From Halobacterium rubrum (lineage in GTDB: Archaea > Halobacteriota > Halobacteria > Halobacteriales > Halobacteriaceae): a stretch of DNA of 64,000 nucleotides. Made by a program: the position numbers and the translations under genes. Each line of letters opens with the position of its first letter. Position 1 is the first letter of the stretch. This document shows, piece after piece, positions 49,390 to 64,000 of the stretch. Under the pieces are notes generated by a model. It was not told the origin of the DNA. It saw only the letters and a program-made list of their open reading frames with translations, and did not search any database. Location: NCBI RefSeq assembly GCF_021729015.1, contig NZ_JAJQQZ010000004.1, positions 124,001 to 188,000 on the forward strand, written 5' to 3'.

Positions 49390-50325
49390 TCAGTAGTCCA
49401 GGTCGTCAGTCGTCGCATCCAGCACCAGCACCGCGCCGGCGCCGACGACGCCCGCAGCCAGCAGCGGCGTGACGGACGCCACCGTCCACGCGCTCGTGGC
49501 GTCAGCGATTTCGATTGCCGGCGCCCGCAGCGCGCCCGCCATCAGCGCGACGAGGAACGTCAGCGTCGCCGCCCGGTAGTGCTCCAGCGCCCACTTCACC
49601 ACTCGCGCGAACGTCAGAATGCCGACCAGCGCGCCAGCGGAGAAGACCACGAGCGTCGACAGCGGCTCGACGGCGTCGCCGAGCGCCCCGGCGAACAGCG
49701 CGTCGACCGAGTCGCTGACCGCGCCGGTCATCGTCTCGTACTTCCCCAGCGTCAACAGGATGAGCGACCCCGACACCCCGGGCAGCACCATCGCGCAGAT
49801 GGCGACCGCGCCGGCGACGAACATCACCGGCAGGCCACCCGGCAGCAGGCCCGCCTGCGCCTGCCCGCTCAAAACGAACGCGAACGCGAACCCACCGACG
49901 CCGGCAGCGACGCGCCCGGGCGTGTCCGCCGACACCTCGCTGAACAGCACGACGACGGACGCGGCGATGAGCCCGAAGAAGAACGCGAAGGTCACCCCCG
50001 GGTACTCGTGGTACGCGACGTCGACGGCGTTCGCGACGGTCACGACCGCCGTCAGGACGCCGACGCCGAGCACCAGGAGGAACGGCACCTCCATGTCGGT
50101 CAGCGCCGTCCCGAGCTCGTCGCGTGCGTCGGCACGCCCCAGCTTCGGGACGAGCGGAAGCAACGCCAGCGTCTCCCCGGGGTCGAGCGCCGCGATTGCG
50201 CTCACGAGCCGCTCGTAGATGCCCGTGATGAGCGCGATGGTCCCGCCTGAGACGCCCGGGACCGCGTCGGCCGCGCCCATCGCCGCGCCTTTCAGGTAGA
50301 CGGCGGCCCACTCCCGCGCCGCCAT
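49390..50325 (-). CDS. DUF368 (PopT-type) polyprenyl-phosphate transporter
   Basis: 311 residues from ATG 50325, whose A is also the last base of the aglB stop (TGATG). About nine hydrophobic segments; the DUF368 signature GAADAVPGVSGGTIALITGIYE is at the N-terminus and AMVLPGVSGSLILLTLGKYE in the middle, i.e. two internal pseudo-repeats. In bacteria DUF368 proteins (PopT) move polyprenyl phosphate back across the membrane after glycan transfer. Directly coupled to aglB here, it most likely recycles dolichyl phosphate released by AglB. Strong functional logic from the neighbour. Confidence 0.88.
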   Translation of the reverse strand: MAAREWAAVYLKGAAMGAADAVPGVSGGTIALITGIYERLVSAIAALDPGETLALLPLVPKLGRADARDELGTALTDMEVPFLLVLGVGVLTAVVTVANAVDVAYHEYPGVTFAFFFGLIAASVVVLFSEVSADTPGRVAAGVGGFAFAFVLSGQAQAGLLPGGLPVMFVAGAVAICAMVLPGVSGSLILLTLGKYETMTGAVSDSVDALFAGALGDAVEPLSTLVVFSAGALVGILTFARVVKWALEHYRAATLTFLVALMAGALRAPAIEIADATSAWTVASVTPLLAAGVVGAGAVLVLDATTDDLDY

Positions 50326-53300
50326 CACCGGAGCCGACCGAGCACTGCGGCGCCCGCGAGCGCCGGCACCGCGCCAGTCGTCACGTCCACGCCGCCCGAC
50401 TGCGAGCCGTCAGCGTCCCCTTCAGACTCGGTCAGGTCGCTCGGCGCAGTGACGGACTCGCTCGTCGACGAGGTGTTGTTCTGGGCGCCCTCCGGTTCGT
50501 CGACGACCTCGCGCTCGAGGTCGACGGTCACCGGCTCGTCGCCCTCACCGAGCACCTGCGCTTCCGAGACGTCGGCCGAATCCGAGAACTCCACGACCGT
50601 CAGGCCGTCGTCGGCGGTCTGGTTTCCGGTCGTGAACTCGTAGGGACCGCTGGCGCGCACGGAGACGTTCGTGTGGCCGTTCTCGGGCCCGAACTCGTCG
50701 TAGCCGTCCGTCGAGTACGGCAGCGTCATCGTGAACTCGCCGTCGGCGCCCGTCTCGGCGTACTGCGTGTACGTGAACTCGGGGCTCTGCCCCTGCTCGT
50801 TGGCCATCTGGGACATGTTCAGCGTCACCGACGCCTCTACCGTGGTGTTCGCCGGACCGGTTCCGGTCACCTCAGCGCCCTCGACGCGCTCGAACAGCTT
50901 CACGGACGTCGGGTAGTACGCCGGGTTCAGCTCCCCGCCGAAGTACCAGAGGTTCGCCGGTGCCGTGTGGTCGTCGCTGACTCCGACCAGCCGGTAGTGC
51001 TGCAGGGCCTCGATGTCCTCCTGCGGCAGGTCCTGGAAGCCACCAATCTGGGCGGACGTGTCGTTGGCCACGTACGCCTCGGCCTCCGCCATTGTGTCGA
51101 ACTGGCGGGTGTTGTTCGTCGCCGCGTCGAACACCGCCGGCTGCCCTCTGACGTTGCGCAGTGTCTCCCGCCAGTCCAGCACGACCGGCTGCGCCTGCTT
51201 CGCGGAGCCGTGGTACCGGTACAGCCGCACCATCATCGACTCGAAGTACGCCTGCTTCTTCAGCAGCGGCGACTGCTGGAAGTACTGGACCTGTCCCTGT
51301 CTGATCTGGCCCTCCTCCCACTGCGCGTTGTACGCCTGCTGGTAGAAGTCACCAGCCGAGAGGTCCCGCGGCCCGTCGTAGAACACGACCGGCGCGCCGA
51401 ACTTCGACTGTCCCGCACCGAGGTCCGGCCGCGGCGGCATCACCATCTTCCAGTCCACCGCCACGTAGCGGTTCTTCGCGTCGTCCTCTTCGATGCCCTC
51501 GAGGACGGACTGCGCCTGACTCTCGTTGTTCGCCAGCAGGAAGTTCGCGGCCGTAGTGGCGCCCTGCTGGAACGGGTTCGCGTGCGGCACGGCGTCCCCC
51601 ATGACGGTCATCCAGTGGCCGTAGTCCCACCACGACACCACGCCGAAGGCGCCGTCGGGGTAGTCGAAGTCGTCGGTCTGGGCGTACGTCCCGTAGTACC
51701 GCATCTCGTCGGCGTTGTCCGCGCCGTCGTACGTCCCCTGGTCGGGGGTGTGGTCGTCGTACCACGCCATCGCGTCGCCCCACGCAGTCACGTCACCGGG
51801 GCCGTTGTTCTTGCCGATGGTGATAGCCGACTGCAGCGGCACCTGCTGGCCCTGACTGTTCGTCAGGGTGATCGGCGTCGCCGACCCCCGCTGGGAGTCG
51901 TTGTTCGTCGCCTCCGCGACGGCCGGCGCCGCGACTGGCACCAGGATGAGGAGAACGACCATCGTCACCGTCCCGACCTGATACCAGCTCACGTCCTCGA
52001 CAGCCGACGCCGGCTTGTCGAGGTCGATAGCTGCGAGCACGCCCTTCAGCACGTACGCGTTCAGCACGACGACCGGCACGACGAGGTAGTAGTTGAACCG
52101 CACCTGCGTGAACGCCGCCGACGTGATGAACGCCCCCCAGACGACGACGAGGAGCTTCTCGGCCTCGTAGCCGCCGGTCACCGCCAGCGCCGTCAGCGTC
52201 GCTGTGACGATTAGCAGGGCCGTGAGCTGGCCGCCGAGTCCGAAGATGCCGCCGATGGCCGCCGACACCGGCGGGGAGACGTACACGAGCGCGATGACCG
52301 CGACTCCGGCGCCTGCACCGAGAATGCGACGAGCGTTCCCGCTCGTCAGGTGGGGCTTCAGGAGAATCGCCGCGGCACCGACGAGCGCCGTGAAGAACGC
52401 CAGCCCGTACTCGAGGAAGACGACGCCGAACGTTCCGAGCCCGTACTGGGCCTTCCGGGCGAGGAACGGCTGTGCCTCGCCGATGGTACGTCGGCTGGCG
52501 TTGGCGCTCAGACCGAGGTAGTTCAACAGCTGATCCTGGAGCGTCGACCAGAAGCTGGGCGCGATCAGCGCGAGCACGCCGACGGCGACAACGAGCGTGC
52601 CGAAGACCGCGCCGACGTACGCCGGCTCGGAGAGCTCGCGGTCGTCGAACTCGCGGGCGAGCCACGCGAGGAACACGCAGCCGAACGCCACCGCGAGTGC
52701 GAACACCGGCTGCAGGAAGGAGAACCCGGAGACACCGAGCCCACTCTCTCCGAGCGGCACGAACATCATGAGTGCGGTCGTCGCCATGCTCACGGCGCCG
52801 ACGACGGCGACGTGGTCGGGGCTCGTACCAGTGACGTAGTCGCCGACGAGCTTCACGAGGAAGAACGCGCCGAAGATGCCGACGAGAAGCACGCCCGGCG
52901 GCCACACCCACATGTAGACGGCGGTGGCGGCGCCGGCGAGTACGCTCCAGCCGACGACCCCTCGGAGGCCCGCGACGTCGCGGTCGAGGAACTGCTCGAA
53001 GACTGGCTTCTCGCGCTCTGCGACGGCCAGTGCCACCATCATCGCGAGCACGGCCAGCGCCATGAACAGCGGCTCCGCGCCGTTGTGGTCCGCCGCACCG
53101 GCCCGCGTCCGGATCATGAAGTACCCGGGCAGCAGGCCGAGGATGACCGCGGAGAACACCCCACCGAGGCGGCCGCCCAGCCGCTTCCCCATGAAGTAGA
53201 CGGGAATCGCCAGCAGCGCGCCGAAGACCGGTGGTGCGATGACCAGCACCATCGCGATGGTGTTCTCGGAGGGGCTACCGAGGCCGACGACCAGGGCGAC

Positions 53301-53621
53301 GGTCGCCAGAATCTGGTCGAACAGCGTACCGAACTGGCCCGCGAGCGTCCCGTTCGGGAAGTTCGTCCACGGGTCGAACGGCATCGTGTCCGGGTAGTTC
53401 CGGACCGTGTACGTCACCTGGCGGAGGTGGTAGTACGCGTCGTTCCCAGAGAGATACACCTGGCCGTCCTGGGTGAAGTTCTCCCACGCCTGCACGCGCA
53501 CCCAGAACATGAACGCGAGCACCGCGCCCAGGGCGGGCACGTGGTACCAGTCTTCGATGGCGTCGAGGGCTGCGTCGAACGAAACGGAAGAGAGCCCCGA
53601 CGCTTCGGTCTTCTCGCTCAT
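50325..53621 (-). CDS. aglB: Oligosaccharyltransferase (dolichyl-phosphooligosaccharide:protein)
   Basis: 1098 residues from ATG 53621. The N-terminal part has about 13 membrane helices with LSGNDAYYHLRQV in the first loop (acidic metal/acceptor site), RTRAGAADHNGAEP later, and YYLVVPVVVLNAY. The soluble C-terminal half carries the diagnostic SWWDYGHW, with WWDYG at residues 664-668, which reads the +2 Ser/Thr of the N-x-S/T sequon. Beta domains and an acidic tail with a short hydrophobic end (VPALAGAAVLGRLR) follow. It transfers the lipid-linked glycan to S-layer and other surface proteins. TATA-like GAATAAGCC lies 24-35 bases upstream. Confidence 0.97.
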   Translation of the reverse strand: MSEKTEASGLSSVSFDAALDAIEDWYHVPALGAVLAFMFWVRVQAWENFTQDGQVYLSGNDAYYHLRQVTYTVRNYPDTMPFDPWTNFPNGTLAGQFGTLFDQILATVALVVGLGSPSENTIAMVLVIAPPVFGALLAIPVYFMGKRLGGRLGGVFSAVILGLLPGYFMIRTRAGAADHNGAEPLFMALAVLAMMVALAVAEREKPVFEQFLDRDVAGLRGVVGWSVLAGAATAVYMWVWPPGVLLVGIFGAFFLVKLVGDYVTGTSPDHVAVVGAVSMATTALMMFVPLGESGLGVSGFSFLQPVFALAVAFGCVFLAWLAREFDDRELSEPAYVGAVFGTLVVAVGVLALIAPSFWSTLQDQLLNYLGLSANASRRTIGEAQPFLARKAQYGLGTFGVVFLEYGLAFFTALVGAAAILLKPHLTSGNARRILGAGAGVAVIALVYVSPPVSAAIGGIFGLGGQLTALLIVTATLTALAVTGGYEAEKLLVVVWGAFITSAAFTQVRFNYYLVVPVVVLNAYVLKGVLAAIDLDKPASAVEDVSWYQVGTVTMVVLLILVPVAAPAVAEATNNDSQRGSATPITLTNSQGQQVPLQSAITIGKNNGPGDVTAWGDAMAWYDDHTPDQGTYDGADNADEMRYYGTYAQTDDFDYPDGAFGVVSWWDYGHWMTVMGDAVPHANPFQQGATTAANFLLANNESQAQSVLEGIEEDDAKNRYVAVDWKMVMPPRPDLGAGQSKFGAPVVFYDGPRDLSAGDFYQQAYNAQWEEGQIRQGQVQYFQQSPLLKKQAYFESMMVRLYRYHGSAKQAQPVVLDWRETLRNVRGQPAVFDAATNNTRQFDTMAEAEAYVANDTSAQIGGFQDLPQEDIEALQHYRLVGVSDDHTAPANLWYFGGELNPAYYPTSVKLFERVEGAEVTGTGPANTTVEASVTLNMSQMANEQGQSPEFTYTQYAETGADGEFTMTLPYSTDGYDEFGPENGHTNVSVRASGPYEFTTGNQTADDGLTVVEFSDSADVSEAQVLGEGDEPVTVDLEREVVDEPEGAQNNTSSTSESVTAPSDLTESEGDADGSQSGGVDVTTGAVPALAGAAVLGRLR

Positions 53622-53656: not shown

Positions 53657-53851
53657 GTCATCTCCCCATGGAGTGAGGGGCTCGATGGCGTCCGCGAATA
53701 GCCGCTATAGATGAGACGTGCCGTCATGTTTGTACCCGGGACTCGCTGGACAACCCGTCCCGACTACCACTTGCGTGGCCGTCTATGGGAACCCCATCTC
53801 GTATGGCCGGGAAGCACAATCCTTATTCGCGACACGAGCGCACTCCCGGTG

Positions 53852-54790
53852 ATGAAGGTCTCAGTCGTCGTCTGCACGTACTCGATGGACCGCTACGGTC
53901 CCTTCTCCGAGGCCGTCGAGAGCGTGCTCGCCCAGACCCACGACGACCTCGAAGTCGTCCTCGTCGTCGACGGAAACGACGAGGTCTTCGAGCGCGTCCG
54001 CGAGGACTTCGGCGACCGCGAGGAGGTCGTACTGCACTGTAACGACGAGAACCAGGGGATCTCGTACAGCCGCACGAAGGGCGCCGAGCTGGCGAGTGGT
54101 GACGTCGTCGCGTTCATCGACGACGACGCCACCGCCGAAGCGGACTGGGTGGCACAGCTCGTCGAAGTGTACGAGGAGACGGACGCTATCGCCGTCGGCG
54201 GCGACGTCGTCCCGGACTGGCAGGTGGAGAAACCGGACTTCTTCCCCGCCGAGTTCTACTGGCTGGTCGGCTGCGTCGAGCCCGGATTCGCGGAAGACGG
54301 CGAGGAAGTCCGGAACACGTACGGCTCGAACATCTCGTACCGGCGCGAGCAGTTTCTGGAGGTCGGTGGGTACGACCCGAACACGGGCCGGAAGGGCGAC
54401 AAGCACCTTCAGGCGCACGAGGCACCCGTGGGGATTCGGTTGCGCGAGGAGTACGGCCGCGGGATGGTGTTCACGCAGGACGCGCGGGTGCACCACAAAC
54501 TGTTCGACTACCGCGGCGAGTTCGGGTGGCTCGTGTTCCGGTCGTTCTGGCAGGGGTACTCCAAGCGCGTGATGGACCTCCTCTACCCCGACGCCGAGGA
54601 CAACAAGAGCAGCTACCTGAAGCAGCTACTGACCCGATTCGTCCCGAAGCGCGCGAAGAATCTGGTGAAGTCGCCGTCGCTGGAGCGGTTCCAGCAGCTC
54701 GTGGCAATCTTCGTGTTCACGGCCGCGGTCGGACTCGGGTACGTGTACGCGATGGCGACGCCGAATCTGGTGGAGAAGGCTAATTCCTAG
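53852..54790 (+). CDS. Family 2 glycosyltransferase, AglG/AglI-like
   Basis: 312 residues from ATG 53852. GT-A motifs: VSVVVCTYSMDRYGPFSEAV, VVLVVDGNDEVFERV, ISYSRTKGAELASGDVVAFI and DDDATAEADWVAQLV, then YRREQFLEVGGYDP. Length and end (a C-terminal membrane helix, LVAIFVFTAAVGLGYVY) match Haloferax AglG, which adds a hexuronic acid to dolichol-linked glycan. It diverges from aglB, so it probably builds the glycan AglB transfers. TATA-like CCTTATTC lies about 24-34 bases upstream. It overlaps the end of the next gene on the other strand by 11 bases. Confidence 0.88.
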   Translation: MKVSVVVCTYSMDRYGPFSEAVESVLAQTHDDLEVVLVVDGNDEVFERVREDFGDREEVVLHCNDENQGISYSRTKGAELASGDVVAFIDDDATAEADWVAQLVEVYEETDAIAVGGDVVPDWQVEKPDFFPAEFYWLVGCVEPGFAEDGEEVRNTYGSNISYRREQFLEVGGYDPNTGRKGDKHLQAHEAPVGIRLREEYGRGMVFTQDARVHHKLFDYRGEFGWLVFRSFWQGYSKRVMDLLYPDAEDNKSSYLKQLLTRFVPKRAKNLVKSPSLERFQQLVAIFVFTAAVGLGYVYAMATPNLVEKANS

Positions 54791-55685
54791 GCGCCGGGAT
54801 GTCGTCGCGTTTCTCGCCGAAGACGTACTCGTAGTAGTAGCCGAGACCGCGAGCCGCGAGCATCGCAATCGAGAGGAATGCAAAGGCGAGTCTCGTGAAG
54901 ATGGAGTCAGGTTCATCCTCGTCGTCGCCGCCGCTCGGCCCGCTCGGCGTCGGTGGGATGCCGGGCTTGCCGTAGCGTTCCGGGTAGTAGCGCTGCTTCT
55001 GGCAGAAGCCCCGTCCGACGCGGAAGTTCTTCTTCGCGAGGGACTCGAAGAACGTTCGAGCGGGGTGGTAGACGGTGGCATCCCCCGCGTATCCTTGCTT
55101 GTAGCCCGCCTCGTGGACGCGCTCGCCGAACTCCCGGTCACCACCAGAGATGAGCCGAGCGTCGAAAAGGCCGACATCCTCAAAGACCTCCCGTTTTACG
55201 AGTAGTGCACACGTCGGGGCGTAGTTCTGCTCATCGAGATATTGTTCCACTGGGAACCCAGTGCTAGCGTTGTATCTGCCGACAATCCCATCTCCGGGGA
55301 GAGCAAGTTCGACATTGCAGCCGAGGTAATCGACGTTCTGATTTTTCATCGCTCTCAGGGCAGTATCGACCCAATCTTCTTCTACCGTCTCATTGGCATC
55401 AAGGAACGCGATAACCTCACCTTCTCCCTCCCGTATTCCCCGGTTTCGAGCGGCATAGGAACCTTGTACTTCGTCTTCGACGATGAGATTGACACTCTTG
55501 TAACGGTTAGTGTATTTCCGAATTTGAGACCGAGAGTCATCGGTTGATCCGTTGTCAACGACGATAACTTTCTGCTGATCGCGCAACTTGAGTAGAGAAT
55601 CTAGGGTCTCTGAGATGCCAGCGGCGTCGTTATACACGGGGATTACAAAGACTAAATTCGGCGGTTCGTCTCCTCCCTTCCACAT
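54780..55685 (-). CDS. Family 2 glycosyltransferase, AglE-like, with GC switch inside the gene
   Basis: 301 residues from ATG 55685 (a TTG two codons earlier is not needed; TTTAACTAAG lies 28-39 bases before the ATG). GT-A motifs: LVFVIPVYNDAAGISETLDS, VIVVDNGSTDDSRS, YAARNRGIREGEGEVIAFLD and DANETVEEDWVD, then LISGGDREFGERVHEAGYK for the acceptor part, and one membrane helix near the C-terminus (FTRLAFAFLSIAMLAARG). Resembles AglE. The C-terminal half has host-like GC, the N-terminal half is AT-richer, so the gene looks mosaic. It probably adds one sugar to the dolichol-linked glycan; the N-terminal catalytic half is the exchanged part. Confidence 0.85.
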   Translation of the reverse strand: MWKGGDEPPNLVFVIPVYNDAAGISETLDSLLKLRDQQKVIVVDNGSTDDSRSQIRKYTNRYKSVNLIVEDEVQGSYAARNRGIREGEGEVIAFLDANETVEEDWVDTALRAMKNQNVDYLGCNVELALPGDGIVGRYNASTGFPVEQYLDEQNYAPTCALLVKREVFEDVGLFDARLISGGDREFGERVHEAGYKQGYAGDATVYHPARTFFESLAKKNFRVGRGFCQKQRYYPERYGKPGIPPTPSGPSGGDDEDEPDSIFTRLAFAFLSIAMLAARGLGYYYEYVFGEKRDDIPAPRN

Positions 55686-55708
55686 ACCCAAATCTCGAGC
55701 AGACTTAG

Positions 55709-56734
55709 TTAAATAGTGTCGAAGTATTGCTCGCCGCCATCGCAGGCTATCATGGCGATGTTTGCATCGCCGTCTTTCTCCGCGATTTTAGTCGCGACGC
55801 TCAATGCGGCCCCGCTCGAGGGACCGATCAGGAGACCATGTTCCTCTGCCGATTTCCTCGTCCACGCCATGGCTGTTTCATCGTCGACTGACGCAACTCG
55901 ATCAATGTAGTCAAACCACATTGTAGGCGTCTCACTTCCTTTCCCTAAGCCTTCGATTCCGGTACAGTACTCTACTGGCTCTTCCCCATAGAACGCAGAG
56001 CTGATATTCGACTTATCGGCGTCGACGCCAACGATTTCTACAGATTCGTCTTTCTGCTTGATGTATTTCCCAATCCCGGATAGCGTCCCGCCAGTGCCCA
56101 TGGGGCACACCACGTGTGTTAAGTCATCTACTTGACCCCATAATTCGGGCCCCGTCCACTTCTTGTGGACTTCAGGATTCAATTGGTTGTGGTACTGGTC
56201 GAGAAAGACGCCGCCGCGATTCTCGGCAATCCTCTCGGCAGTGTTTCTGTAATGATCCTCAGAAGAAGAATCAACATCCGGACACTCAACTAAGTCAGAC
56301 CCGAAGGCTTTGACGTACCCGGTTTTTTGAGGGGTCGTTGTTTGAGGGGTGGTTATCACACTCTCGTAACCCAGTCGGTTGGCTACTAACGCCACTCCAC
56401 CGGCTGTATTGCCTGAAGACGCTTCGACGATGAGATCCCCATCCGTCAACTCACCTGACTTCTCCATCTCCAGAACCATGCCCAGAGCGATGCGATCTTT
56501 CATCGACCCGGTTGGGTTCTCTTTTTCTAGTTTTATGAAGAGTTCCCCAGCGAAGTCTTGCGGAAACTCTACGATGGGCGTATCGCCGATGAGGGAAAGG
56601 ACAGGGTCATCTGTAGTATACCCGTCCTCAGTCATTGACTCTCGCTTTTCACACATAGCTGCAGCCGTTTCCATACAGCCTCCGGCCGATGATAATTCTA
56701 TGCCCGGTCGAGAGCCCTCTTCCTCCTCTGTCAT
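55709..56734 (-). CDS. Cysteine-synthase-family PLP enzyme
   Basis: 341 residues from ATG 56734; ATG 56635 would give 308 residues and a normal N-terminus (LSLIGDTPIVEF). GAATATATCC about 23-32 bases before ATG 56734 supports the longer form. PLP motifs: ENPTGSMKDRIALGM (Schiff-base Lys), EASSGNTAGGVAL, CPMGTGGTLSGIGKYI and GPSSGAALSVA. The enzyme makes cysteine or a related beta-substituted amino acid from an activated serine. It sits in the low-GC island, and an amino-acid synthase here may supply a glycan substituent. That role is inferred; ordinary cysteine synthesis is possible. Confidence 0.82.
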   Translation of the reverse strand: MTEEEEGSRPGIELSSAGGCMETAAAMCEKRESMTEDGYTTDDPVLSLIGDTPIVEFPQDFAGELFIKLEKENPTGSMKDRIALGMVLEMEKSGELTDGDLIVEASSGNTAGGVALVANRLGYESVITTPQTTTPQKTGYVKAFGSDLVECPDVDSSSEDHYRNTAERIAENRGGVFLDQYHNQLNPEVHKKWTGPELWGQVDDLTHVVCPMGTGGTLSGIGKYIKQKDESVEIVGVDADKSNISSAFYGEEPVEYCTGIEGLGKGSETPTMWFDYIDRVASVDDETAMAWTRKSAEEHGLLIGPSSGAALSVATKIAEKDGDANIAMIACDGGEQYFDTI

Positions 56735-56851
56735 TAGGGCCTGTTTGACCGGGGTAGAATATATCCTTGTTGTTAAGGTCTTAGTTAGACGATTGCATCT
56801 AAATCGAGTAGAAACGAAAACTCTATTCAGGAATCTTCGTCACCAGACAGT

Positions 56852-58645
56852 ATGACCCGTTTCTTTGCCACCTCAAGCTCCGACTCGGTTGCAGATATAG
56901 AATCAAGTCCCGGAATCCAGACAGCAAATATGTCTGGTTCTATCGACCGGGAGGAAGTCGCGCTGAGGACGTACCACAAGCGGTGCATCGAGAATGAGAA
57001 CTTTCGAGCATTCGACGACGGTGATTTCGTAGCAGTTGTAGGGACGCTAATTCTAGATGGAAAAATCGGGGGGGAGGTCCTAGAGCTAGTCTACGAACAC
57101 GTGACGTCTGGGAATCAGAGCGTAATTCGGGAACAGGGGCTTGGTCATTACGCAGTGGTGGTCTGCGAGGACGACGAATTGACGGCTTTCACAGACCCCA
57201 ACGGCGTGTTCGAACTCTACTATATGTCAGGCGAGAATTGGATTATCTCGGATGGGCTTGCCGCTTGTTCACGGTCACTTGATTCGAGAACAGTCAATCG
57301 TCACCAGCTATTTGAACTAGCTATCGAATACTCCGAGATCTCAGAAGCTAGTGTATTCGACAGTGTTGATCGACTCTTCGGATCGGAGATGTTAGAAGTC
57401 AATCTCACAGACGGCACCCTGCGTGTGTCAGAGGTCGGTCTACCAGAGAGAGACTGGGATTATACGGATGCTTCTTTCGGGGATGTTCTGACAGATTACG
57501 CTAGTCGTGTGCGAGACACATTCGAAGAATTGGAGCAGGCCTCCGACTCGATCGGTGTCCAGGCAACCGGCGGTTTAGACTCTCGAACCGTCCTCGGTGG
57601 CTTGTTGAACGAGGGCGTTGAGCCGATAATTCTCTACGGCGTGGGGAACTCCAAGCTGACGAATACGAAAGACAGCGATGCTATGCTGGCTAAACGGTTT
57701 GCAGATAGGTACGACCTGCCGTTTGAGCAACTTGATTGGCGGGAAGAGTATCCTCTCGGAATAGATACCTGGAATAATCTGTTCCGTTCGTATGGGTTTG
57801 ACTTCCTAATGTACGGAGCTACGACTTCCTTCTTCGATTCGTTCACTGACCGAGGAGAGAATATGCCCGAGTTGGTGATGAGTGGCTATGGCTTCGGGAC
57901 GGTATCGAATACGTACTTTTGGGAGATGTCCGATGTAACTCCAATATCATTCGAAGATCTGGTGAAAGATTACTTCACAGCGGTAGACTGTTTCGAGAAC
58001 TCTCTTCGCAACCGAAGTGAGTACGAAGAAGAACTTGTTGACGAGTGTCAGGCGGCTCTACAGAAACTCACAAATGAACCCCTCGAAGAACCGTTCGATA
58101 TTGGTGAATTCTCAAAGGTGATCCAACTATTGTTTGGTCGCCCCCAGTCGGCCTACGCAAGCTCGGCGAACGAGTTCACGTTCCATATAGCACCGCTCGC
58201 GACATACGAGTTGAGTCGACCAGTCATCGACTTCCCTACCGAATATCGCGCCGGGGAGCGTATCCGCATTCATCTGATCAAAGATCTGTTTCCCGACATT
58301 CTCGAACCGCCGCTCTTCTCTGGCCGGAAACAGGCCTCAATCACAGAGAATGGGCGCATTCGAAGGCCCGTGTCGGAGCGACTGAAACAGCGTGTTGACG
58401 ACTCCTTTCCGGAATTCCTTCTCCAGTTGATTCGGCCAGTGTACTATAGATTCACCGACAACAACCCTCTCGACGATATCGATACGGAAATTTTGGAGGA
58501 AGCTGCGGATTACATCGAAACCACTGGCGTCATCGATAACCAGTTTGAAGCTGAGAAGCAACACGGTTCTGTCCGACAGACACTTCGCCTCGCCCTTCTC
58601 TGCTACGCAGTCGACCAGATCGGATACGATTCACTACAACGGTAG
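56852..58645 (+). CDS. Asparagine-synthetase-like ligase without N-terminal cysteine
   Basis: 597 residues from ATG 56852 (ATG 56930 is possible). The N-terminal part follows the glutaminase fold of AsnB (VVVCEDDELTAFTDPNGVFELYY), but there is no Met-Cys start, so no glutamine-hydrolysing nucleophile. The ATP-pyrophosphatase domain shows VQATGGLDSRTVLGGLL, the PP-loop SGGxDS variant. Proteins of this kind (AsnB-like, beta-lactam synthetase-like) use ATP to form amides, with ammonia or an amine as donor. In this island it could amidate or aminoacylate a sugar acid. The sequence is AT-rich like the rest of the island. Confidence 0.82.
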   Translation: MTRFFATSSSDSVADIESSPGIQTANMSGSIDREEVALRTYHKRCIENENFRAFDDGDFVAVVGTLILDGKIGGEVLELVYEHVTSGNQSVIREQGLGHYAVVVCEDDELTAFTDPNGVFELYYMSGENWIISDGLAACSRSLDSRTVNRHQLFELAIEYSEISEASVFDSVDRLFGSEMLEVNLTDGTLRVSEVGLPERDWDYTDASFGDVLTDYASRVRDTFEELEQASDSIGVQATGGLDSRTVLGGLLNEGVEPIILYGVGNSKLTNTKDSDAMLAKRFADRYDLPFEQLDWREEYPLGIDTWNNLFRSYGFDFLMYGATTSFFDSFTDRGENMPELVMSGYGFGTVSNTYFWEMSDVTPISFEDLVKDYFTAVDCFENSLRNRSEYEEELVDECQAALQKLTNEPLEEPFDIGEFSKVIQLLFGRPQSAYASSANEFTFHIAPLATYELSRPVIDFPTEYRAGERIRIHLIKDLFPDILEPPLFSGRKQASITENGRIRRPVSERLKQRVDDSFPEFLLQLIRPVYYRFTDNNPLDDIDTEILEEAADYIETTGVIDNQFEAEKQHGSVRQTLRLALLCYAVDQIGYDSLQR

Positions 58646-58714
58646 TGCGTCTGGACTTGGTACCGTCCTCACCCCGAGATACTTTACAGTTGAACCGCTA
58701 TTAGGGAGACACCT

Positions 58715-59830
58715 ATGGCAGAGAATAGTGTGGAATTGTTGAAAAAGGGTGTGAAGAATCCAGAGAGAGCGATTAGATACGTCGCTCGAAAATTGGGCGA
58801 CCGGGCGATAGATTTCTACGGAGCGGCACATCAAACGTTCCATCGCCACCCAGATCAAGCCGAGTTGATACACGATTTCGTCAACGCTAATGACGAGTTC
58901 GTACTTGTCGTCCTCGACGCCTGCCGATACGACAAATTCCAGTCAGTAATCGGTGATTATCTCGACGGCGAAGTTTCTGCTGCCTGGAGTCCCGGTAGTC
59001 TCACCCCTGAATGGGGTCCCAAGGTGTGGGACCAGCAGTACGATTTGACGTACATTAGTTCGAACCCGATTATCGGCAACTTCGAGTACGCTCCCCGGAA
59101 CAACGACTTCGGTTACGAGACATTCTGTGCAGCCGACCACGTCTCAGAGTTTGTCGACGCGTACAATTTTGGATGGGACGAAGACGACCGGACCGTCCGA
59201 CCTGAAGTAATGACCGATACCGCTCTAGAAGTCGCAGCACGAGACAGCCCAACCCGGATGGTTGTTCACTATCTACAACCACATCTCCCCTTTGTTGGTG
59301 AGAACGGGTTCTCGATGATACCACTGGAACACAAAACCGATGTTGACGCTACCGAACTGACGGGGCAGGAACGCACTCAGTATTTGAGAGAAACGACAGA
59401 AATCACGGTTCGGGAGAAAGTAGAGAAGGGAGTGACCTGGCAGGAAGAACTCGAGTACAATATCTCTGTGACGGACAATGAACTGCGCGGGTATCGTCCA
59501 CTTCTTGAGCAAGGACTAATTGAGAAGGCTGATATCGAACGGGGGTACGTGGGGAATCTCAAGCTCGCTCTGTCAGAAGTCCGTCGACTAGCCAGACGGC
59601 TCGATTGCCCAGTTGTGGTGACTTCTGACCACGGTGAACTTCTCGGGGAATGGGACCGATACGAACATCCCCCAATTCGCCATCCCACCCTGCGTAGAGT
59701 CCCATGGTTCAGGGTCGACTCTATTGAGACTGATCAGATGGTAAACAACCACGCGCCACTTGAGCACCAAGAGAAGGATATTGACGACGAATCAGTCGAG
59801 AGGCGTCTTGAGAGTCTCGGATACGTATAA
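58715..59830 (+). CDS. AlkP-superfamily sulfatase-like hydrolase
   Basis: 371 residues from ATG 58715; TTTACAGTTG is 25-32 bases upstream. Metal-site motifs: FVLVVLDACRYDKF near residue 68, a possible nucleophile Thr in SPGSLTPEWGPKVW, HYLQPHLPFVG, and VVTSDHGELLGEW near residue 306. It is related to sulfatases and phosphoethanolamine transferases, although the Cys/Ser-x-P-x-R signature of sulfatases is not obvious. No signal or transmembrane anchor, so it works in the cytoplasm. Within the glycan island it may modify or trim sugar phosphates or sulfates. Confidence 0.8.
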   Translation: MAENSVELLKKGVKNPERAIRYVARKLGDRAIDFYGAAHQTFHRHPDQAELIHDFVNANDEFVLVVLDACRYDKFQSVIGDYLDGEVSAAWSPGSLTPEWGPKVWDQQYDLTYISSNPIIGNFEYAPRNNDFGYETFCAADHVSEFVDAYNFGWDEDDRTVRPEVMTDTALEVAARDSPTRMVVHYLQPHLPFVGENGFSMIPLEHKTDVDATELTGQERTQYLRETTEITVREKVEKGVTWQEELEYNISVTDNELRGYRPLLEQGLIEKADIERGYVGNLKLALSEVRRLARRLDCPVVVTSDHGELLGEWDRYEHPPIRHPTLRRVPWFRVDSIETDQMVNNHAPLEHQEKDIDDESVERRLESLGYV

Positions 59831-59874
59831 AACTAAAATATGGAAGACACATTCCGTAGCGAGGTGTAGATAGT

Positions 59875-60573
59875 ATGTCTGATGACACCGACAATACCCA
59901 ATTCGACAGAGTATTAGGTGTTCTTGGGGGGATGGGGCCGGAGGCGACGGTGGATTTCATGGATAAGTTGGTTACGGCCACGCCGGCAGAAGTGGACCAG
60001 GACCACATCGAAACGGTAGTCTACAACGACCCGAAGATTCCTGACCGAAACCAGGCTATCCTCGAGGGGGCGGAGAGTCCACTCCCACGATTGAAACGCA
60101 ACGTGAACCGGTTGGAGGAACTTGGCGTTGACGTGCTAGCCTTACCGTGCAATACGGCTCACTATTACTTTGAGGACCTTGCGTCTGAATCGGACGCCGC
60201 GCTCATAAATATGATATCACGGACGAGAGAAGTGATAGAAGAGATGGGGATCGAATCTGCGGGGCTACTTGCTACAGAGACAGTCATGGAAGCTGGAGTG
60301 TACGATGACGAGTTCGCCGAATCGCCAGTGGATCTAGTGGAGCCAGCTGACAGGGATGCTCTCATGAGCTGCATTTACGATATTAAGCGGAAGAACCATC
60401 AGCAGGCCCAAGACTCGTATGACGAGGTAATCAGGCAATTGATGGAGAGAGAAGTTAGTTGCCTAATCGTCGGTTGCACTGATTTAGCACTTCTCGAGGT
60501 TGAATTTGACATTCCGGTGGTTGACACAACGTCCGTCCTCGTGGATGCTTGTATCGACCGAACCCGGGCATGA
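59875..60573 (+). CDS. Aspartate/glutamate racemase family protein
   Basis: 232 residues from ATG 59875. The family pattern is complete: VLGVLGGMGPEATVDFMDKL, ALPCNTAHYYFEDL with the first catalytic Cys, and IVGCTDLALLEVEF with the second Cys. Both catalytic cysteines present indicates cofactor-independent racemisation of aspartate (or glutamate). TAAAATATGG about 32-41 bases upstream may be the TATA element. It is in tandem with the ligase and the AlkP-like gene, so a D-amino acid could be the building block for the ligase. That link is inference. Confidence 0.86.
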   Translation: MSDDTDNTQFDRVLGVLGGMGPEATVDFMDKLVTATPAEVDQDHIETVVYNDPKIPDRNQAILEGAESPLPRLKRNVNRLEELGVDVLALPCNTAHYYFEDLASESDAALINMISRTREVIEEMGIESAGLLATETVMEAGVYDDEFAESPVDLVEPADRDALMSCIYDIKRKNHQQAQDSYDEVIRQLMEREVSCLIVGCTDLALLEVEFDIPVVDTTSVLVDACIDRTRA

Positions 60574-60728
60574 GATGCAGAAGTGTGAAGATAGTACAAA
60601 TAGGGATTCGTGGAATGGAAGTTACGTCCTGAATGTCCGGGGTTCCACTGGACGTTTGAGCTCGTTGCAGTCCTGAGTCCGCACTTCTGAACTGCCAATT
60701 CCATTTATTGGCATGTTCAGATGTCGAT
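60574..60728. other. 155-base convergent spacer in the low-GC island
   Basis: No gene is credible here. It separates the racemase gene from the end of the candidate GT-B gene on the other strand; several AT-rich words are present but no strong hairpin. Confidence 0.4.
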
Positions 60729-62153
60729 CTATTCTTCATCCATAATTTGATTTAGCCGCCGTTCGAATTCCTGAATAGCATTCTGCTGGAAGAACCGTTC
60801 TGAGTCATATTCCACGGTTGTCTCTTCACCAAGTTCGCCAATGAGGTCCTGCGGAGAAGAGACAGTGGTAATTGTGCCGTCGTCAATCAGGTCCTGAACG
60901 TAGTGTACTCCCTCAATATCCAGAACGTACGTTTTGAGGTCAAAGTAGAGACCTTCGTAAATTGCAGTCGAATACACACCTACTTGAATATCGACGCTCG
61001 AGAACAACTCATAGAGCGTCATTGATTCATCTCCGTGAATTTCGACTGGTGATTCGACTAGCCACGGGTACTTACTTTTCCAGGTAGAGTACTCGTCGGG
61101 GTGTAACTTGTAAATCACCGAACACTCGTCCTCTGTAGCTTCTGCCAACTCGACCGCGAATTTCGACAACTCGGCCCCGATTGTTCCTTGGGATATAAAC
61201 GCAACCCGTCTTTTCGAATTTGCTTCGGACGTCCGTTCTATGCTGACTTCGGACGCTTTCTGTTCTAAATACGGGTATCCGACGTCGTAGACATTTTCTT
61301 CGTCAATTGGCAGGTCTAACCTATTACGCCAGAACGCCCCGAACGTCAAGAAGTAATCCGGGAATGTGTCTTTCTCTTCGTCAGAAGGATACGAATACCC
61401 ACAGTGGTATTTCGAGATAGATCCGTGTTGTAACTCTACCACTGGGACCCCCACATTCTGACACGCCTCGATGAACGATTCTTTCCCATAGCTGACGACG
61501 AGCACGACAACCTTCGGTTTCACCCGAGTCAGAAGGGACTCGTAGAGTGGAACGAGAATCCTTCTCTCGGCCAACTCCTCTCGAACCGCTTCGGCTACAT
61601 CAATCTCCACTCCGAAAGCCGTCTCGAATGCCTCCTCAACTCTCGCTAAATATTCGGCTTCCGCGTCCGAAAGCTCGTAGTGAGGCAACATTTTGTAGAG
61701 GGTACCACAGTACTCGATGAGGTCCGTGTACCTGAGAGAGCTAGTCCGAGCGGGAGTATAGTGGGTTAATCCGTGATCGTACTCGATTGAGACCGCGTCA
61801 AGGTTTAGTTCCTCAAGAATTGGGTCCGTATATAGGTCCCACCACGTTCCATCAGGTTGTTTCTTTCTCCGAGGGTGTGAGTAGAAGAGAAGATCGTGTT
61901 GGGATACCAAGTAGGGATTCCGAATTATCGCATTGCGGAACAGTAGATGTAGGCCGCGGAATCGGTCACTCCAAGACTCACCGGGCTCAGCGTTCGCTTC
62001 GCCGAATACCCCGACCGAACTGCAGATATCGTCGTAGATGTCGTTTCGAACTCGCCCCCAGTATCGGACGTCTTCAACAGTCCGGTCGAACAAGCGGAAT
62101 CGGGATTCGAGATCGTTGAGTGTGGCGTGAATCTCTGGAATCGAGAATGTCAT
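60729..62153 (-). CDS. Candidate GT-B glycosyltransferase / polysaccharide biosynthesis protein
   Basis: 474 residues from ATG 62153; the family is not certain. The first 200 residues are an N-terminal alpha/beta domain. The C-terminal half has GT-B traits: VVVLVVSYGKESFIEACQNV, VPVVELQHGSISKYHCGYSY with an H-G-S and G-Y motif, DYFLTFGAFWRNRLDL, VAFISQGTIGAELSKFAVEL, VIYKLHPDEYSTWKSKYP and STAIYEGLYFDLKTYVLD. The pattern KLHPxE and STAxxEGL recalls capsule/KDO/sialic-type and CDP-glycerol-type transferases. It follows neuB in the same operon (68 bases), so the sugar it moves may be the nonulosonate made there. Confidence 0.72.
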   Translation of the reverse strand: MTFSIPEIHATLNDLESRFRLFDRTVEDVRYWGRVRNDIYDDICSSVGVFGEANAEPGESWSDRFRGLHLLFRNAIIRNPYLVSQHDLLFYSHPRRKKQPDGTWWDLYTDPILEELNLDAVSIEYDHGLTHYTPARTSSLRYTDLIEYCGTLYKMLPHYELSDAEAEYLARVEEAFETAFGVEIDVAEAVREELAERRILVPLYESLLTRVKPKVVVLVVSYGKESFIEACQNVGVPVVELQHGSISKYHCGYSYPSDEEKDTFPDYFLTFGAFWRNRLDLPIDEENVYDVGYPYLEQKASEVSIERTSEANSKRRVAFISQGTIGAELSKFAVELAEATEDECSVIYKLHPDEYSTWKSKYPWLVESPVEIHGDESMTLYELFSSVDIQVGVYSTAIYEGLYFDLKTYVLDIEGVHYVQDLIDDGTITTVSSPQDLIGELGEETTVEYDSERFFQQNAIQEFERRLNQIMDEE

Positions 62154-62221
62154 TTCAGCTCTATTCCTTTCCAGCAAATTCGTCCACTACGGAACCTCAT
62201 ATGACCCTGCACTCGCATCAC

Positions 62222-63244
62222 CTACTCTGGCCTTAGATGGTCTTCTTTGACGACGCTGTTTGCTGGAAGGTCGACGTCTATGGCCTCGCCAATGACCTCG
62301 TAGAAGCGGTCTGCACTAATTCCTGTTCCGGGGCGTTTAGTGGTGAGGTCGTCCTCAGTGAGCCTCTGACCAGCTTCCACATCTTCCGCAGTCACGATGC
62401 TGTGTCGTGCCCACGCCTTGACGTCCGCTTCCTCGTCCGTGGTGAACTTCTCTCTCCCCGAAGTACTGTGCACTAGCTCTGCGTAGTCAGTCAGTGTATC
62501 AATCTCTTCGGGTTCGATAGACACCTCTTGGTCCGGCCCTGGTAGCCGCCGGTCGATGGTGAAGTGCTTCTCTACGAAGTCGGCTCCGCGAGCCATCGCG
62601 ATGACTGACGCTTCCACCCCCGTCGAGTGGTCAGAAAATCCCACGGGAACATCATACTTCGTCTTCATCTCTTCAATGGTGTCCAGTTGGAAGTCGGCTG
62701 GATCAGTTGGGTACTCGGATACGCAGTAGAGAAGACCGAATTTAGCATCTCTTTCATTTAGGAAGTCGACTGTATCTGCGATAGTACCGTAGTCGCTCAT
62801 CCCCGTAGAGACTAACAGGGGGACGCCTGCCTCCACTGCCCGGTCGAGCAGGGGGTAGTTCGTCAGCTCACCAGACCCGATCTTGATCGCGGAGACATCT
62901 AGCTCCTCAAGCCAGTCGACAGCTTTTACCGAAAACGGGGTCGACAAATACTCTACGTCTTCGCGGTCACAGTGGTCCTTTAGCGCCCGGTGCTCGTCCT
63001 TCGAAAAGGAACAACCGGAGACCACCTCGTAGACCTCACCGGCGCCGATTTTCTCCATCTCCTCTGCAACCATCTCCTCGTTTGAAAGGTGGGTTTGGAA
63101 CTTTATTGCGTCCGCACCGGAGTTGGCAGCCACCTCAATGAACCGCTTCGCCAATTCGATATCGTCGCCGGCGTTGATTCCGACCTCCGCTATAACGAAC
63201 GGTACTTCGTCACTACCAATCTGAATCTTGTTCATAGTCGTCAT
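62222..63244 (-). CDS. neuB: N-acetylneuraminate / legionaminate synthase family protein
   Basis: 340 residues from ATG 63244 (ATG 63235 is an alternative). NeuB motifs: PFVIAEVGINAGDDIELAKR, AIKFQTHLSNEEMVAEE, YLSTPFSVKAVDWLEEL, AIKIGSGELTNYPLL, VSTGMSDYGTIAD and VGFSDHSTGVEASVIAM, then VEKHFTIDRRLPGPDQE. A C-terminal SAF (antifreeze-like) domain ends RPGTGISADRFYEVIGE. It condenses phosphoenolpyruvate with an N-acyl hexosamine to a nonulosonic acid (sialic, legionaminic or pseudaminic). It starts 3 bases after neuC, so the two are co-expressed. The exact nonulosonate cannot be read from the sequence. Confidence 0.92.
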   Translation of the reverse strand: MTTMNKIQIGSDEVPFVIAEVGINAGDDIELAKRFIEVAANSGADAIKFQTHLSNEEMVAEEMEKIGAGEVYEVVSGCSFSKDEHRALKDHCDREDVEYLSTPFSVKAVDWLEELDVSAIKIGSGELTNYPLLDRAVEAGVPLLVSTGMSDYGTIADTVDFLNERDAKFGLLYCVSEYPTDPADFQLDTIEEMKTKYDVPVGFSDHSTGVEASVIAMARGADFVEKHFTIDRRLPGPDQEVSIEPEEIDTLTDYAELVHSTSGREKFTTDEEADVKAWARHSIVTAEDVEAGQRLTEDDLTTKRPGTGISADRFYEVIGEAIDVDLPANSVVKEDHLRPE

Positions 63245-63247
63245 AAC

Positions 63248-64000
63248 TTACCTCGGCGAAGTATCTTTTACTTCCGGTTGAACCCCAGCTTGCTCGGGGC
63301 TCATTGGCTCTTTTCGTTCGAATGTGATCGAAGTTAGAATATCGATTACCCTGTCGGCTGCGCCTCCAGATCCGTAAATGAAGCTGGGGTCGTACTCACC
63401 GTGCTTGATTTGGGTTCTGAGCGCCTCTTCGATTGCCGACGTTTCGCACTCCACGTCCACCACGTTCGGACCGCGTTCTCTGTGCGATTGCCGATTACCC
63501 ACGTTCACTACAGGAGTTCCGAAGTACGAACATTCGCGAATCCCAACACTCGAGTTTCCGACAACACAAGCTGCGTTACTTACAAGTGTCAGGTAGTCTT
63601 TCGGCTCGAGATTGATAAAAAACCGCACTCCGTCTGGAGCCTTCTCCTCACGGTACTCGCGTATCGCCTTAGATACCTGATCTGTTCCGGCGTCCATATT
63701 CGGCCAGAACCAGAACACTTGCACGTCTAGTCTGTTTACTGCTTCAATCAACAATCGGGTCTTTTCGTAATTACTCTGGTACTCAGTCGGTAGCGGATGG
63801 TACTGCACAACAATGTATGGTTCATCTACATCAACCCGATCACCAACTCCGCCATATTCCTCTTGGGGGTCGTAGTGGTCAGACCGGTTCCGTTCAATCT
63901 CTGCCGCAATATCGATGGAGGGGCATCCAGTTCGATAAATCCTATCTTGATTTTCCCCGAGACTCTCCACAATTCTCTTGCTGCGCTCCGTCGACACAAA
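63248..64000 (-). CDS. neuC: UDP-N-acetylglucosamine 2-epimerase (hydrolysing) family protein, 5' end cut by window edge
   Basis: At least 251 residues are visible; the frame remains open at the right edge, and the usual family length of about 370-390 residues means roughly a third of the N-terminus lies outside. Motifs: STERSKRIVESLGE, DRIYRTGCPSIDIA, IVVQYHPLPTE, and ACVVGNSSVGIRECSYFGTPVVNVG, the signature of NeuC/LegG-type enzymes. They convert a UDP-GlcNAc derivative to ManNAc-type sugar for NeuB. Immediately upstream of neuB by 3 bases. Confidence 0.9.
   Translation of the reverse strand, partial: FVSTERSKRIVESLGENQDRIYRTGCPSIDIAAEIERNRSDHYDPQEEYGGVGDRVDVDEPYIVVQYHPLPTEYQSNYEKTRLLIEAVNRLDVQVFWFWPNMDAGTDQVSKAIREYREEKAPDGVRFFINLEPKDYLTLVSNAACVVGNSSVGIRECSYFGTPVVNVGNRQSHRERGPNVVDVECETSAIEEALRTQIKHGEYDPSFIYGSGGAADRVIDILTSITFERKEPMSPEQAGVQPEVKDTSPR

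What the first reader, a model, noticed from the sequence alone, without database searches (positions are those of the whole stretch)
55709..64000. Candidate system: nonulosonic-acid glycan with amino-acid or amide decoration next to aglB
The island combines a cysteine-synthase-like enzyme, an AsnB-like ATP-dependent ligase lacking glutaminase cysteine, an AlkP-like hydrolase, an Asp/Glu racemase with both catalytic cysteines, and a neuC-neuB-transferase operon. Amino-acid synthesis, racemisation and amide ligation together with nonulosonate synthesis suggest a surface sugar carrying an amino acid (possibly D-configured) or carboxamide. I know of no described haloarchaeal pathway of exactly this set. 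Each family assignment is firm or likely; the joint pathway is inference.
Basis: partly seen in the sequence, partly recalled or inferred. Interest (0 to 1): 0.8.

Follow-up and report, generated by a model that had tools for sequence, protein, structure and literature searches.

The report
Amino-acid-decorated sialic-acid-like sugar island
A salt-loving archaeon carries a foreign-looking gene block that appears to build a sialic-acid-like surface sugar and, with a dedicated amino-acid-making enzyme and an ATP-driven ligase, to hang an unusual acidic amino acid on its surface glycan; the same gene set recurs in two other archaeal families, but its product has not been seen.

Summary
All named genes are present, intact, and carry the stated motifs. 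PALP through neuA form one block of about 51% GC in about 70% GC DNA, next to aglB. The full set (PALP, racemase, glutaminase-dead AsnB-like ligase, AlkP-like enzyme, GT-B transferase, NeuA/B/C) is co-localised but reordered in two other haloarchaeal families. In about 390 genomes the close AsnB-like, AlkP-like and racemase homologues occur only in these three.

Two refinements. (1) The core is a PALP plus AsnB-like pair. A dedicated PALP clade, split 100/100 from housekeeping cysteine synthases, is next to an AsnB-like ligase in 10 of 19 genomes. Eight of those are aglB clusters, most without nonulosonate genes. (2) The PALP has drifted away from cysteine synthase and shares three positions with a solved cysteate synthase. 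With an acidic-type racemase this suggests cysteate, or another acidic amino acid, possibly D.

Best reading: an amide-linked acidic amino acid on a carboxylated sugar (nonulosonate or uronate) of a surface glycan, probably the N-glycan. Gene linkage is shown; amino acid, acceptor and stereochemistry are inferred. Archaeal amino-acid glycans and haloarchaeal nonulosonates are known, so this is a new variant.

The parts
50325..53621 (-). aglB oligosaccharyltransferase, anchor of the N-glycosylation locus
   Evidence: 1098-aa ORF; aglB relatives flank the PALP + AsnB-like pair in seven other genomes
53711..54790 (+). aglG glucuronosyltransferase (supplies a hexuronic acid, a possible carboxylate acceptor); the true start may be further in
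   Evidence: NF041394 527 bits, above its cut-off of 440
54780..55691 (-). family-2 glycosyltransferase of the agl cluster
   Evidence: PF00535 E 5e-25; 66-73% identical copies beside PALP in three other agl clusters
55709..56734 (-). dedicated PLP-dependent beta-substituted-alanine synthase (PALP; cysteine-synthase superfamily, possibly cysteate synthase)
   Evidence: PF00291 E 3e-67; separate clade from housekeeping CysK, 100/100; S106, Y162, K265 shared with CapA-type 9k2p
56852..58645 (+). AsnB-like ATP-dependent amide ligase with degenerate glutaminase domain (no Cys2) and intact TGGLDSR loop
58715..59830 (+). alkaline-phosphatase-superfamily (sulfatase-like) enzyme, soluble
   Evidence: PF00884 E 7e-6, just over cut-off; 52-55% orthologues only in the two other full-set genomes of 392
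59875..60573 (+). Asp/Glu-type (acidic amino acid) racemase
   Evidence: TIGR00035 184 bits and NF052483 234 bits, both over cut-off; C82, C194, R48, K164 of Pyrococcus aspartate racemase kept
60729..62177 (-). GT_x, putative CMP-nonulosonate-dependent GT-B glycosyltransferase
   Evidence: GT-B fold matches by Foldseek, low-to-moderate model; next to neu genes in three genomes and to a Pse pathway in a fourth; invariant HP and ST motifs
62222..63244 (-). neuB, nonulosonate synthase
   Evidence: PF03102 E 4e-72; TIGR03569 320 bits, above TIGR03586 236 bits
63248..64000 (-). neuC, hydrolysing UDP-GlcNAc 2-epimerase (continues to window 64447; then neuA at 64508-65269 and glmS)
   Evidence: PF02350 E 1e-31; complete ORF and neuA in locus L002

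Best explanation
The island is a horizontally acquired surface-glycan module. glmS, neuC, neuB and neuA make CMP-nonulosonate; with no dehydratase or aminotransferase in the cluster it is most simply a ManNAc-derived, Neu5Ac-type acid. GT_x transfers it to a lipid-linked glycan. The dedicated PALP makes a beta-substituted alanine, which the racemase can convert to its D-form. The glutaminase-dead AsnB-like ligase adenylates a sugar carboxylate (nonulosonate C1 or a uronate C6) and couples it to the amino group of that amino acid, giving an amide. The AlkP-like enzyme does an associated phospho- or sulfo-group step of unknown kind. Because the block adjoins aglB, aglG and an agl-type GT2, the acceptor is probably the N-glycan. 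Shown: gene content, motifs, GC boundary, conserved co-localisation, and PALP + AsnB-like linkage. Inferred: every reaction, the amino acid (most likely acidic; cysteate favoured over aspartate), the acceptor and the stereochemistry.
For: Full set conserved but reordered in three families. AsnB-like (full-length, over 40% identity), AlkP-like (over 50%) and racemase (over 48%) homologues found only in those three genomes of about 390, while NeuB occurs in 19 of 121 genomes. PALP clade adjacent to three different AsnB-like subfamilies in 10 of 19 genomes, 9 genera, 3 families; 8 in aglB clusters. All AsnB-like partners keep [ST]GGxDSR and lack Cys2; F14 members also hit amide cyclases of the AsnB family. 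PALP split 100/100 from CysK; CapA/CysKM score ratio 0.85-0.97 in the clade against 0.47-0.66 in cysteine-synthase paralogues. Acidic-side-chain residues R48 and K164 kept in the racemase. Low-GC block. Precedents: Thr on a mannuronate of Methanococcus N-glycan (PMC2952790), AsnB-type WbpS amidating a glucuronate (PMC7468200), nonulosonate genes beside aglB in Halorubrum PV6 (PMC6137143).
Against: No product, substrate or mutant data. The AsnB-like model was unusable (pLDDT 39.5), so the nucleophile pocket could not be inspected; a ligase using free ammonia (plain carboxamide) is not excluded. Nine of 19 PALP genomes have no AsnB-like neighbour in the stretch examined, and three of those (one genus) lie in non-glycan surroundings. 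No aglB was found near the set in G233 and G263. A PseC-like aminotransferase exists about 76 kb away, so a 4-amino nonulosonate is not fully excluded.
Confidence: 0.55

Rival explanations
1. Plain carboxamide: the AsnB-like enzyme works as WbpS does, turning a uronate or nonulosonate carboxylate into a simple amide with ammonia, while PALP and racemase act elsewhere (for example sulfur supply).
For: AsnB-type WbpS of Porphyromonas makes a glucuronamide (PMC7468200); family score to TIGR01536 and TIGR03108 in related ligases.
Against: Glutaminase Cys2 is missing in all PALP-linked ligases examined, and the amino-acid synthase is their recurrent neighbour in 10 genomes, which a plain amide would not need.
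Confidence: 0.17
2. Reverse polarity: the ligase adenylates the amino acid and acylates a sugar amine, giving an N-aminoacyl neuraminic or amino sugar.
For: N-seryl and N-glycyl sugars exist (PMC7468200); AsnB-fold ligases can activate either partner (established family knowledge).
Against: In Porphyromonas aminoacylation is assigned to VimA, a predicted N-acyltransferase, not to an AsnB; nothing in the cluster is an obvious N-deacetylase that would free an amine.
Confidence: 0.15
3. Patchwork: PALP + ligase belong to the ancestral agl N-glycan, and the neu operon is an independent passenger for another glycan, so there is no joint product.
For: PALP + AsnB-like occur with aglB and without neu genes in seven genomes; aglB was not found near the set in G233 and G263.
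Against: The racemase, the AlkP-like clade and the F14 ligase subfamily travel only with neuABC and GT_x in three families with different gene orders; one GC block spans both operons.
Confidence: 0.13

Closest known systems
Legionaminic acid and agl gene region of Halorubrum sp. PV6 (PMC6137143)
   Same: Nonulosonate synthesis (NeuB/C/A homologues) clustered with aglB and a sulfatase-like gene in a haloarchaeon
   Different: Has dehydratase, aminotransferase and acetyltransferase (LegB/C/H); the text names no asparagine-synthase or cysteine-synthase gene
Threonine-substituted N-glycan of Methanococcus voltae and M. maripaludis (PMC2952790)
   Same: Archaeal N-glycan with an amino acid on position 6 of a uronic acid
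   Different: Threonine and ManNAcA, no nonulosonate; the attaching enzyme was unidentified at that date
WbpS (PGN_1234) of Porphyromonas gingivalis (PMC7468200)
   Same: AsnB-family ligase acting on a sugar carboxylate in a surface glycan
   Different: Makes a simple carboxamide; not reported with an amino-acid synthase or racemase
Lasso-peptide and ikarugamycin-type AsnB-like cyclases; beta-lactam synthetase
   Same: AsnB fold forming an amide with an amine other than ammonia; window-type ligases from two genomes hit NF033561 at E 4e-9 and 2e-8
   Different: Peptide or small-molecule substrates, no glycan context
CapA cysteate synthase of sulfonolipid synthesis (solved chain 9k2p, NF053679)
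   Same: PALP superfamily; shares S106, Y162 and K265 positions with the island PALP
   Different: 36-38% identity; island PALPs score about 165-219 bits against a cut-off of 600; bacterial lipid pathway

Membership tests
Nonulosonate (sialic-acid type) pathway NeuC-NeuB-NeuA | 2-epimerase, PEP-dependent synthase and CMP-transferase all present and clustered | tested here: met
   best-scoring models TIGR03568, TIGR03569 and TIGR03584, each below its strict equivalog cut-off
Legionaminic or pseudaminic pathway | 4,6-dehydratase and aminotransferase in the cluster | tested here: not met
   None within the block or in the G233 and G263 loci; a PseC-like aminotransferase lies about 76 kb away
Glutamine-hydrolysing asparagine synthase (AsnB) | N-terminal nucleophile Cys at position 2 | tested here: not met
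   Absent in all ligases of the set
AsnB-fold ATP-dependent amide ligase | PP-loop SGGxDS type motif and detectable homology | tested here: met
   TGGLDSR; TIGR01536 E 4e-5; hhalign E 1e-11 to F21 and 3.5e-11 to F28, which hit PF00733
Cysteine synthase CysK/CysM | Score over TIGR01136/01139/01138 cut-offs and placement with CysK | tested here: not met
   234, 221 and 194 bits against cut-offs 344, 351 and 394; excluded from the CysK clade 100/100
Cysteate synthase CapA | Score over NF053679 cut-off (600) | tested here: not met
   206 bits; relative shift toward CapA and three shared diagnostic positions only
Cysteate synthase activity | Makes cysteate from phosphoserine and sulfite | not testable with these tools
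   Needs an enzyme assay
Cysteate racemase CuyB / aspartate racemase | Two catalytic Cys, acidic side-chain residues, family score | tested here: inconclusive
   Over both cut-offs, but genuine Pyrococcus aspartate racemase also passes the CuyB cut-off (249 against 190), so the substrate is not resolved
AlkP-superfamily sulfatase | Over Pfam Sulfatase cut-off; metal-site and nucleophile motifs | tested here: met
   26.0 against 25 bits; LDACRxD, WSxGS, DHGE and HP motifs conserved; reaction unknown
CMP-dependent sialyl- or KDO-type GT-B transferase (GT_x) | Family hit to GT38, GT52, GT80, KpsC or similar | tested here: not met
   No Pfam hit even at E 10; only generic GT-B fold matches

The most novel reading that the evidence does not exclude
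The module makes D-cysteate (PALP from phosphoserine or serine plus sulfite, then racemase) and links it by an amide to the carboxylate of a sialic-acid-like sugar in an archaeal N-glycan: a sulfonated D-amino-acid sialoconjugate. More broadly, a PALP + glutaminase-dead AsnB pair would be a general haloarchaeal system for putting non-protein amino acids on N-glycans.
Probability: 0.2. Interest if true: 0.85.

Novelty: new variant of a known kind. Interest (0 to 1): 0.6.

Why it matters
Amino-acid-bearing archaeal N-glycans have been known since the Methanococcus threonine glycan, whose attaching enzyme was unidentified in the review read here. This locus names a candidate enzyme class (a PALP-linked, glutaminase-dead AsnB ligase) present in nine haloarchaeal genera, so the question becomes testable by single knock-outs and glycopeptide mass spectrometry. 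If the amino acid is cysteate, it would be an unusual sulfonate route to negative surface charge in hypersaline brine, alongside sulfation and uronic acids. The mobile low-GC block also shows how surface glycan decoration is exchanged between haloarchaeal families.

Tried and rejected
AlphaFold of the AsnB-like ligase from four sequences gave pLDDT 39.5 and was discarded. GT_x gave only generic GT-B matches, dominated by UDP-GlcNAc 2-epimerases and teichoic-acid polymerases, and no Pfam hit at E 10, so the sialyltransferase idea rests on neighbours and the HP/ST motifs. The CuyB family hit looked like proof of cysteate, but a genuine aspartate racemase passes the same cut-off, so it was demoted. 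The GTDB contig scan with the ligase alignment returned one locus, Natronorubrum sulfidifaciens; the plasmid search returned nothing. Central cysteine metabolism was rejected for the PALP: two other cysteine-synthase-like paralogues sit elsewhere in the genome (33% and 32% identity). A clade of the three full-set PALPs was not found: the window PALP groups with neu-less agl clusters. That argues that the PALP was already resident at aglB while the rest of the set moved, or that it was replaced by recombination. The housekeeping rows L053 and L057 are long branches, so the inner placement of PALP relative to CBS and CapA is unsure.
Full report
What is there. The window is contig C4:124001-188000 of a 3.07 Mb haloarchaeal genome. 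From aglB rightward the genes are aglB(-), aglG(+), a GT2(-), PALP(-), AsnB-like(+), AlkP-like(+), racemase(+), GT_x(-), neuB(-), neuC(-), then outside the window neuA(-), glmS(-) and two sugar nucleotidyltransferases(-). Gaps are short: AsnB-like to AlkP-like 69 bp, AlkP-like to racemase 44 bp, GT_x to neuB 44 bp, neuB to neuC 3 bp, neuC to neuA 60 bp, neuA to glmS 12 bp. This fits two operons, AsnB-like/AlkP-like/racemase and (glmS)/neuA/neuC/neuB/GT_x. GC falls to about 50-55% from the middle of GT2 through neuA, against about 70% in the rest of the window and 63-64% from glmS onward. The block therefore looks like one imported unit that ends at neuA.

Family assignments. PALP, racemase, NeuB and NeuC are firm. 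NeuA is a cytidylyltransferase closest to PseF (173 bits against a cut-off of 206). aglG is firm (NF041394). The AlkP-like call is just over the Pfam cut-off but keeps the LDACRxD, WSxGS, DHGE and HP motifs. The AsnB-like protein has no Pfam hit and a weak TIGR01536 hit. Homology is secured through relatives: profile comparison with two other PALP-linked subfamilies gives E 1e-11 and 3.5e-11, and these hit PF00733 directly. All keep [ST]GGxDSR and none has Cys at position 2. GT_x is unclassified; its model gives GT-B matches, and it has invariant HP and ST motifs that resemble those of CMP-sugar transferases (from memory, inference).

Conservation of the set. The ligase was found in 4 of 293 haloarchaeal genomes by sequence search and in 6 of 391 with the profile. 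In G233 and G263, which belong to two other families, PALP, racemase, AsnB-like, AlkP-like, GT_x, NeuB, NeuC and NeuA lie together in a different order. AlkP-like homologues over 50% identity occur only in these three of 392 genomes, the next best being 36%. Racemase homologues occur in six, three of them at 48% or more, again the same three. NeuB-family genes occur in 19 of 121 genomes, so nonulosonates are not rare but this set is. None of the 12 other genomes of the window's genus that were searched has the ligase. A more distant ligase (30%) and GT_x (41%) sit beside a pseudaminic-acid-type cluster in G216, which matches Natronorubrum sulfidifaciens. This independently ties GT_x and the ligase family to nonulosonates.

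The wider pair. The island-type PALP occurs in 19 of 392 genomes at 42-71% identity. In ten of them an AsnB-like ligase is the next gene, or is separated by the racemase or by about 1.1 kb: G000, G233, G263, G295, G183, G304, G230, G334, G287, G375. These cover nine genera and three families, and the ligases fall into three subfamilies. Eight are aglB/aglG clusters. AlkP-superfamily genes are also in several of these. With only a few ligase candidates per 3-4 Mb genome, chance adjacency would be about one in a hundred per genome (rough estimate), so ten of nineteen is not chance. In G302 a PALP and a racemase of this kind lie within about 4 kb of each other near a contig end, a further link between synthase and racemase; that racemase has Ser in place of the first catalytic Cys.

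Which amino acid. The PALP clade is separated from housekeeping cysteine synthases with full support. It scores 193-234 bits on CysKM, while housekeeping haloarchaeal CysK score about 400; its CapA (cysteate synthase) scores are in the same range as theirs (about 165-219 against 160-199), so the CapA/CysKM ratio is 0.85-0.97 against 0.47-0.66. The solved chain 9k2p, deposited under a generic name, is a CapA-type cysteate synthase by family score (597 bits for a fragment, cut-off 600). At positions where the island clade is invariant or nearly so and CysK differs, it shares with 9k2p but not with a cystathionine beta-synthase S106 of the SSGN loop and Y162; at K265 of the EGxGK motif 9k2p and most island members have Lys. 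Cysteate synthase in sulfonolipid synthesis starts from L-phosphoserine (PMC11211663). The racemase keeps the two Cys and both residues that in Pyrococcus aspartate racemase sit at positions 48 and 164; their role in binding the acidic side chain is from memory. A synthase plus a racemase for acidic amino acids points to cysteate, with aspartate, S-sulfocysteine or another acidic product possible. The CuyB hit does not decide this, because the Pyrococcus aspartate racemase also passes that cut-off. I put cysteate, given that the overall model is right, at roughly 0.4.

Mechanism. The neu genes would give ManNAc, then a Neu5Ac-type acid, then its CMP form; no dehydratase or aminotransferase is in the cluster. 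The ligase would activate a carboxylate with ATP and couple it to an amine. Because the glutaminase is dead and an amino-acid synthase is the constant partner, the amine is most simply that amino acid. The carboxylate could be the nonulosonate C1 or, in clusters without neu genes, the hexuronic acid supplied by AglG. The alternatives are listed as rivals.

Comparison. Haloarchaeal nonulosonate synthesis beside aglB is known (PMC6137143). An archaeal N-glycan with threonine on a mannuronate is known, and its attaching enzyme was unidentified in the review read here (PMC2952790). An AsnB-type enzyme acting on a sugar carboxylate is known (PMC7468200). I found no description of the PALP + dead-AsnB pair or of this set in the literature searches made; the library is partial.

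Noticed in passing
PDB 9k2p: Deposited as a generic PLP-dependent protein beta subunit; by NF053679 score it is a CapA-type cysteate synthase.
   Followed up: yes
L009:6028-7167 (G263): A WbuX-type N-acetyl sugar amidotransferase (TIGR03573, 303 bits) sits inside the full-set cluster of G263, suggesting an additional acetamidino-type change there.
   Followed up: partly
L087:4383-10948 (G417): An island-type PALP lies beside PseI/PseG-like genes, but no AsnB-like ligase was found within 20 kb.
   Followed up: partly
L079:8246-9064 and family F7 in L080, L082, L083, L092: An FkbM methyltransferase recurs in the PALP-containing agl clusters, possibly for O-methylation of the same glycan.
   Followed up: partly
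window:49390-50328: A small multi-pass membrane protein (GAADAVPGVSGGTIALITG) next to aglB recurs beside aglB in other genomes (L079, L080, L081, L082); its role in the N-glycan pathway is unclear.
   Followed up: no
L104:4868-5986 (contig C4:108967-110085): A PseC/LegC-like sugar aminotransferase lies in a second polysaccharide-like region about 15 kb left of the window.
   Followed up: partly
contig C4:216322-216912 and 235826-236467 (L003, L004): Two archaellin genes lie 28-48 kb right of the island, possible targets of the N-glycan.
   Followed up: no
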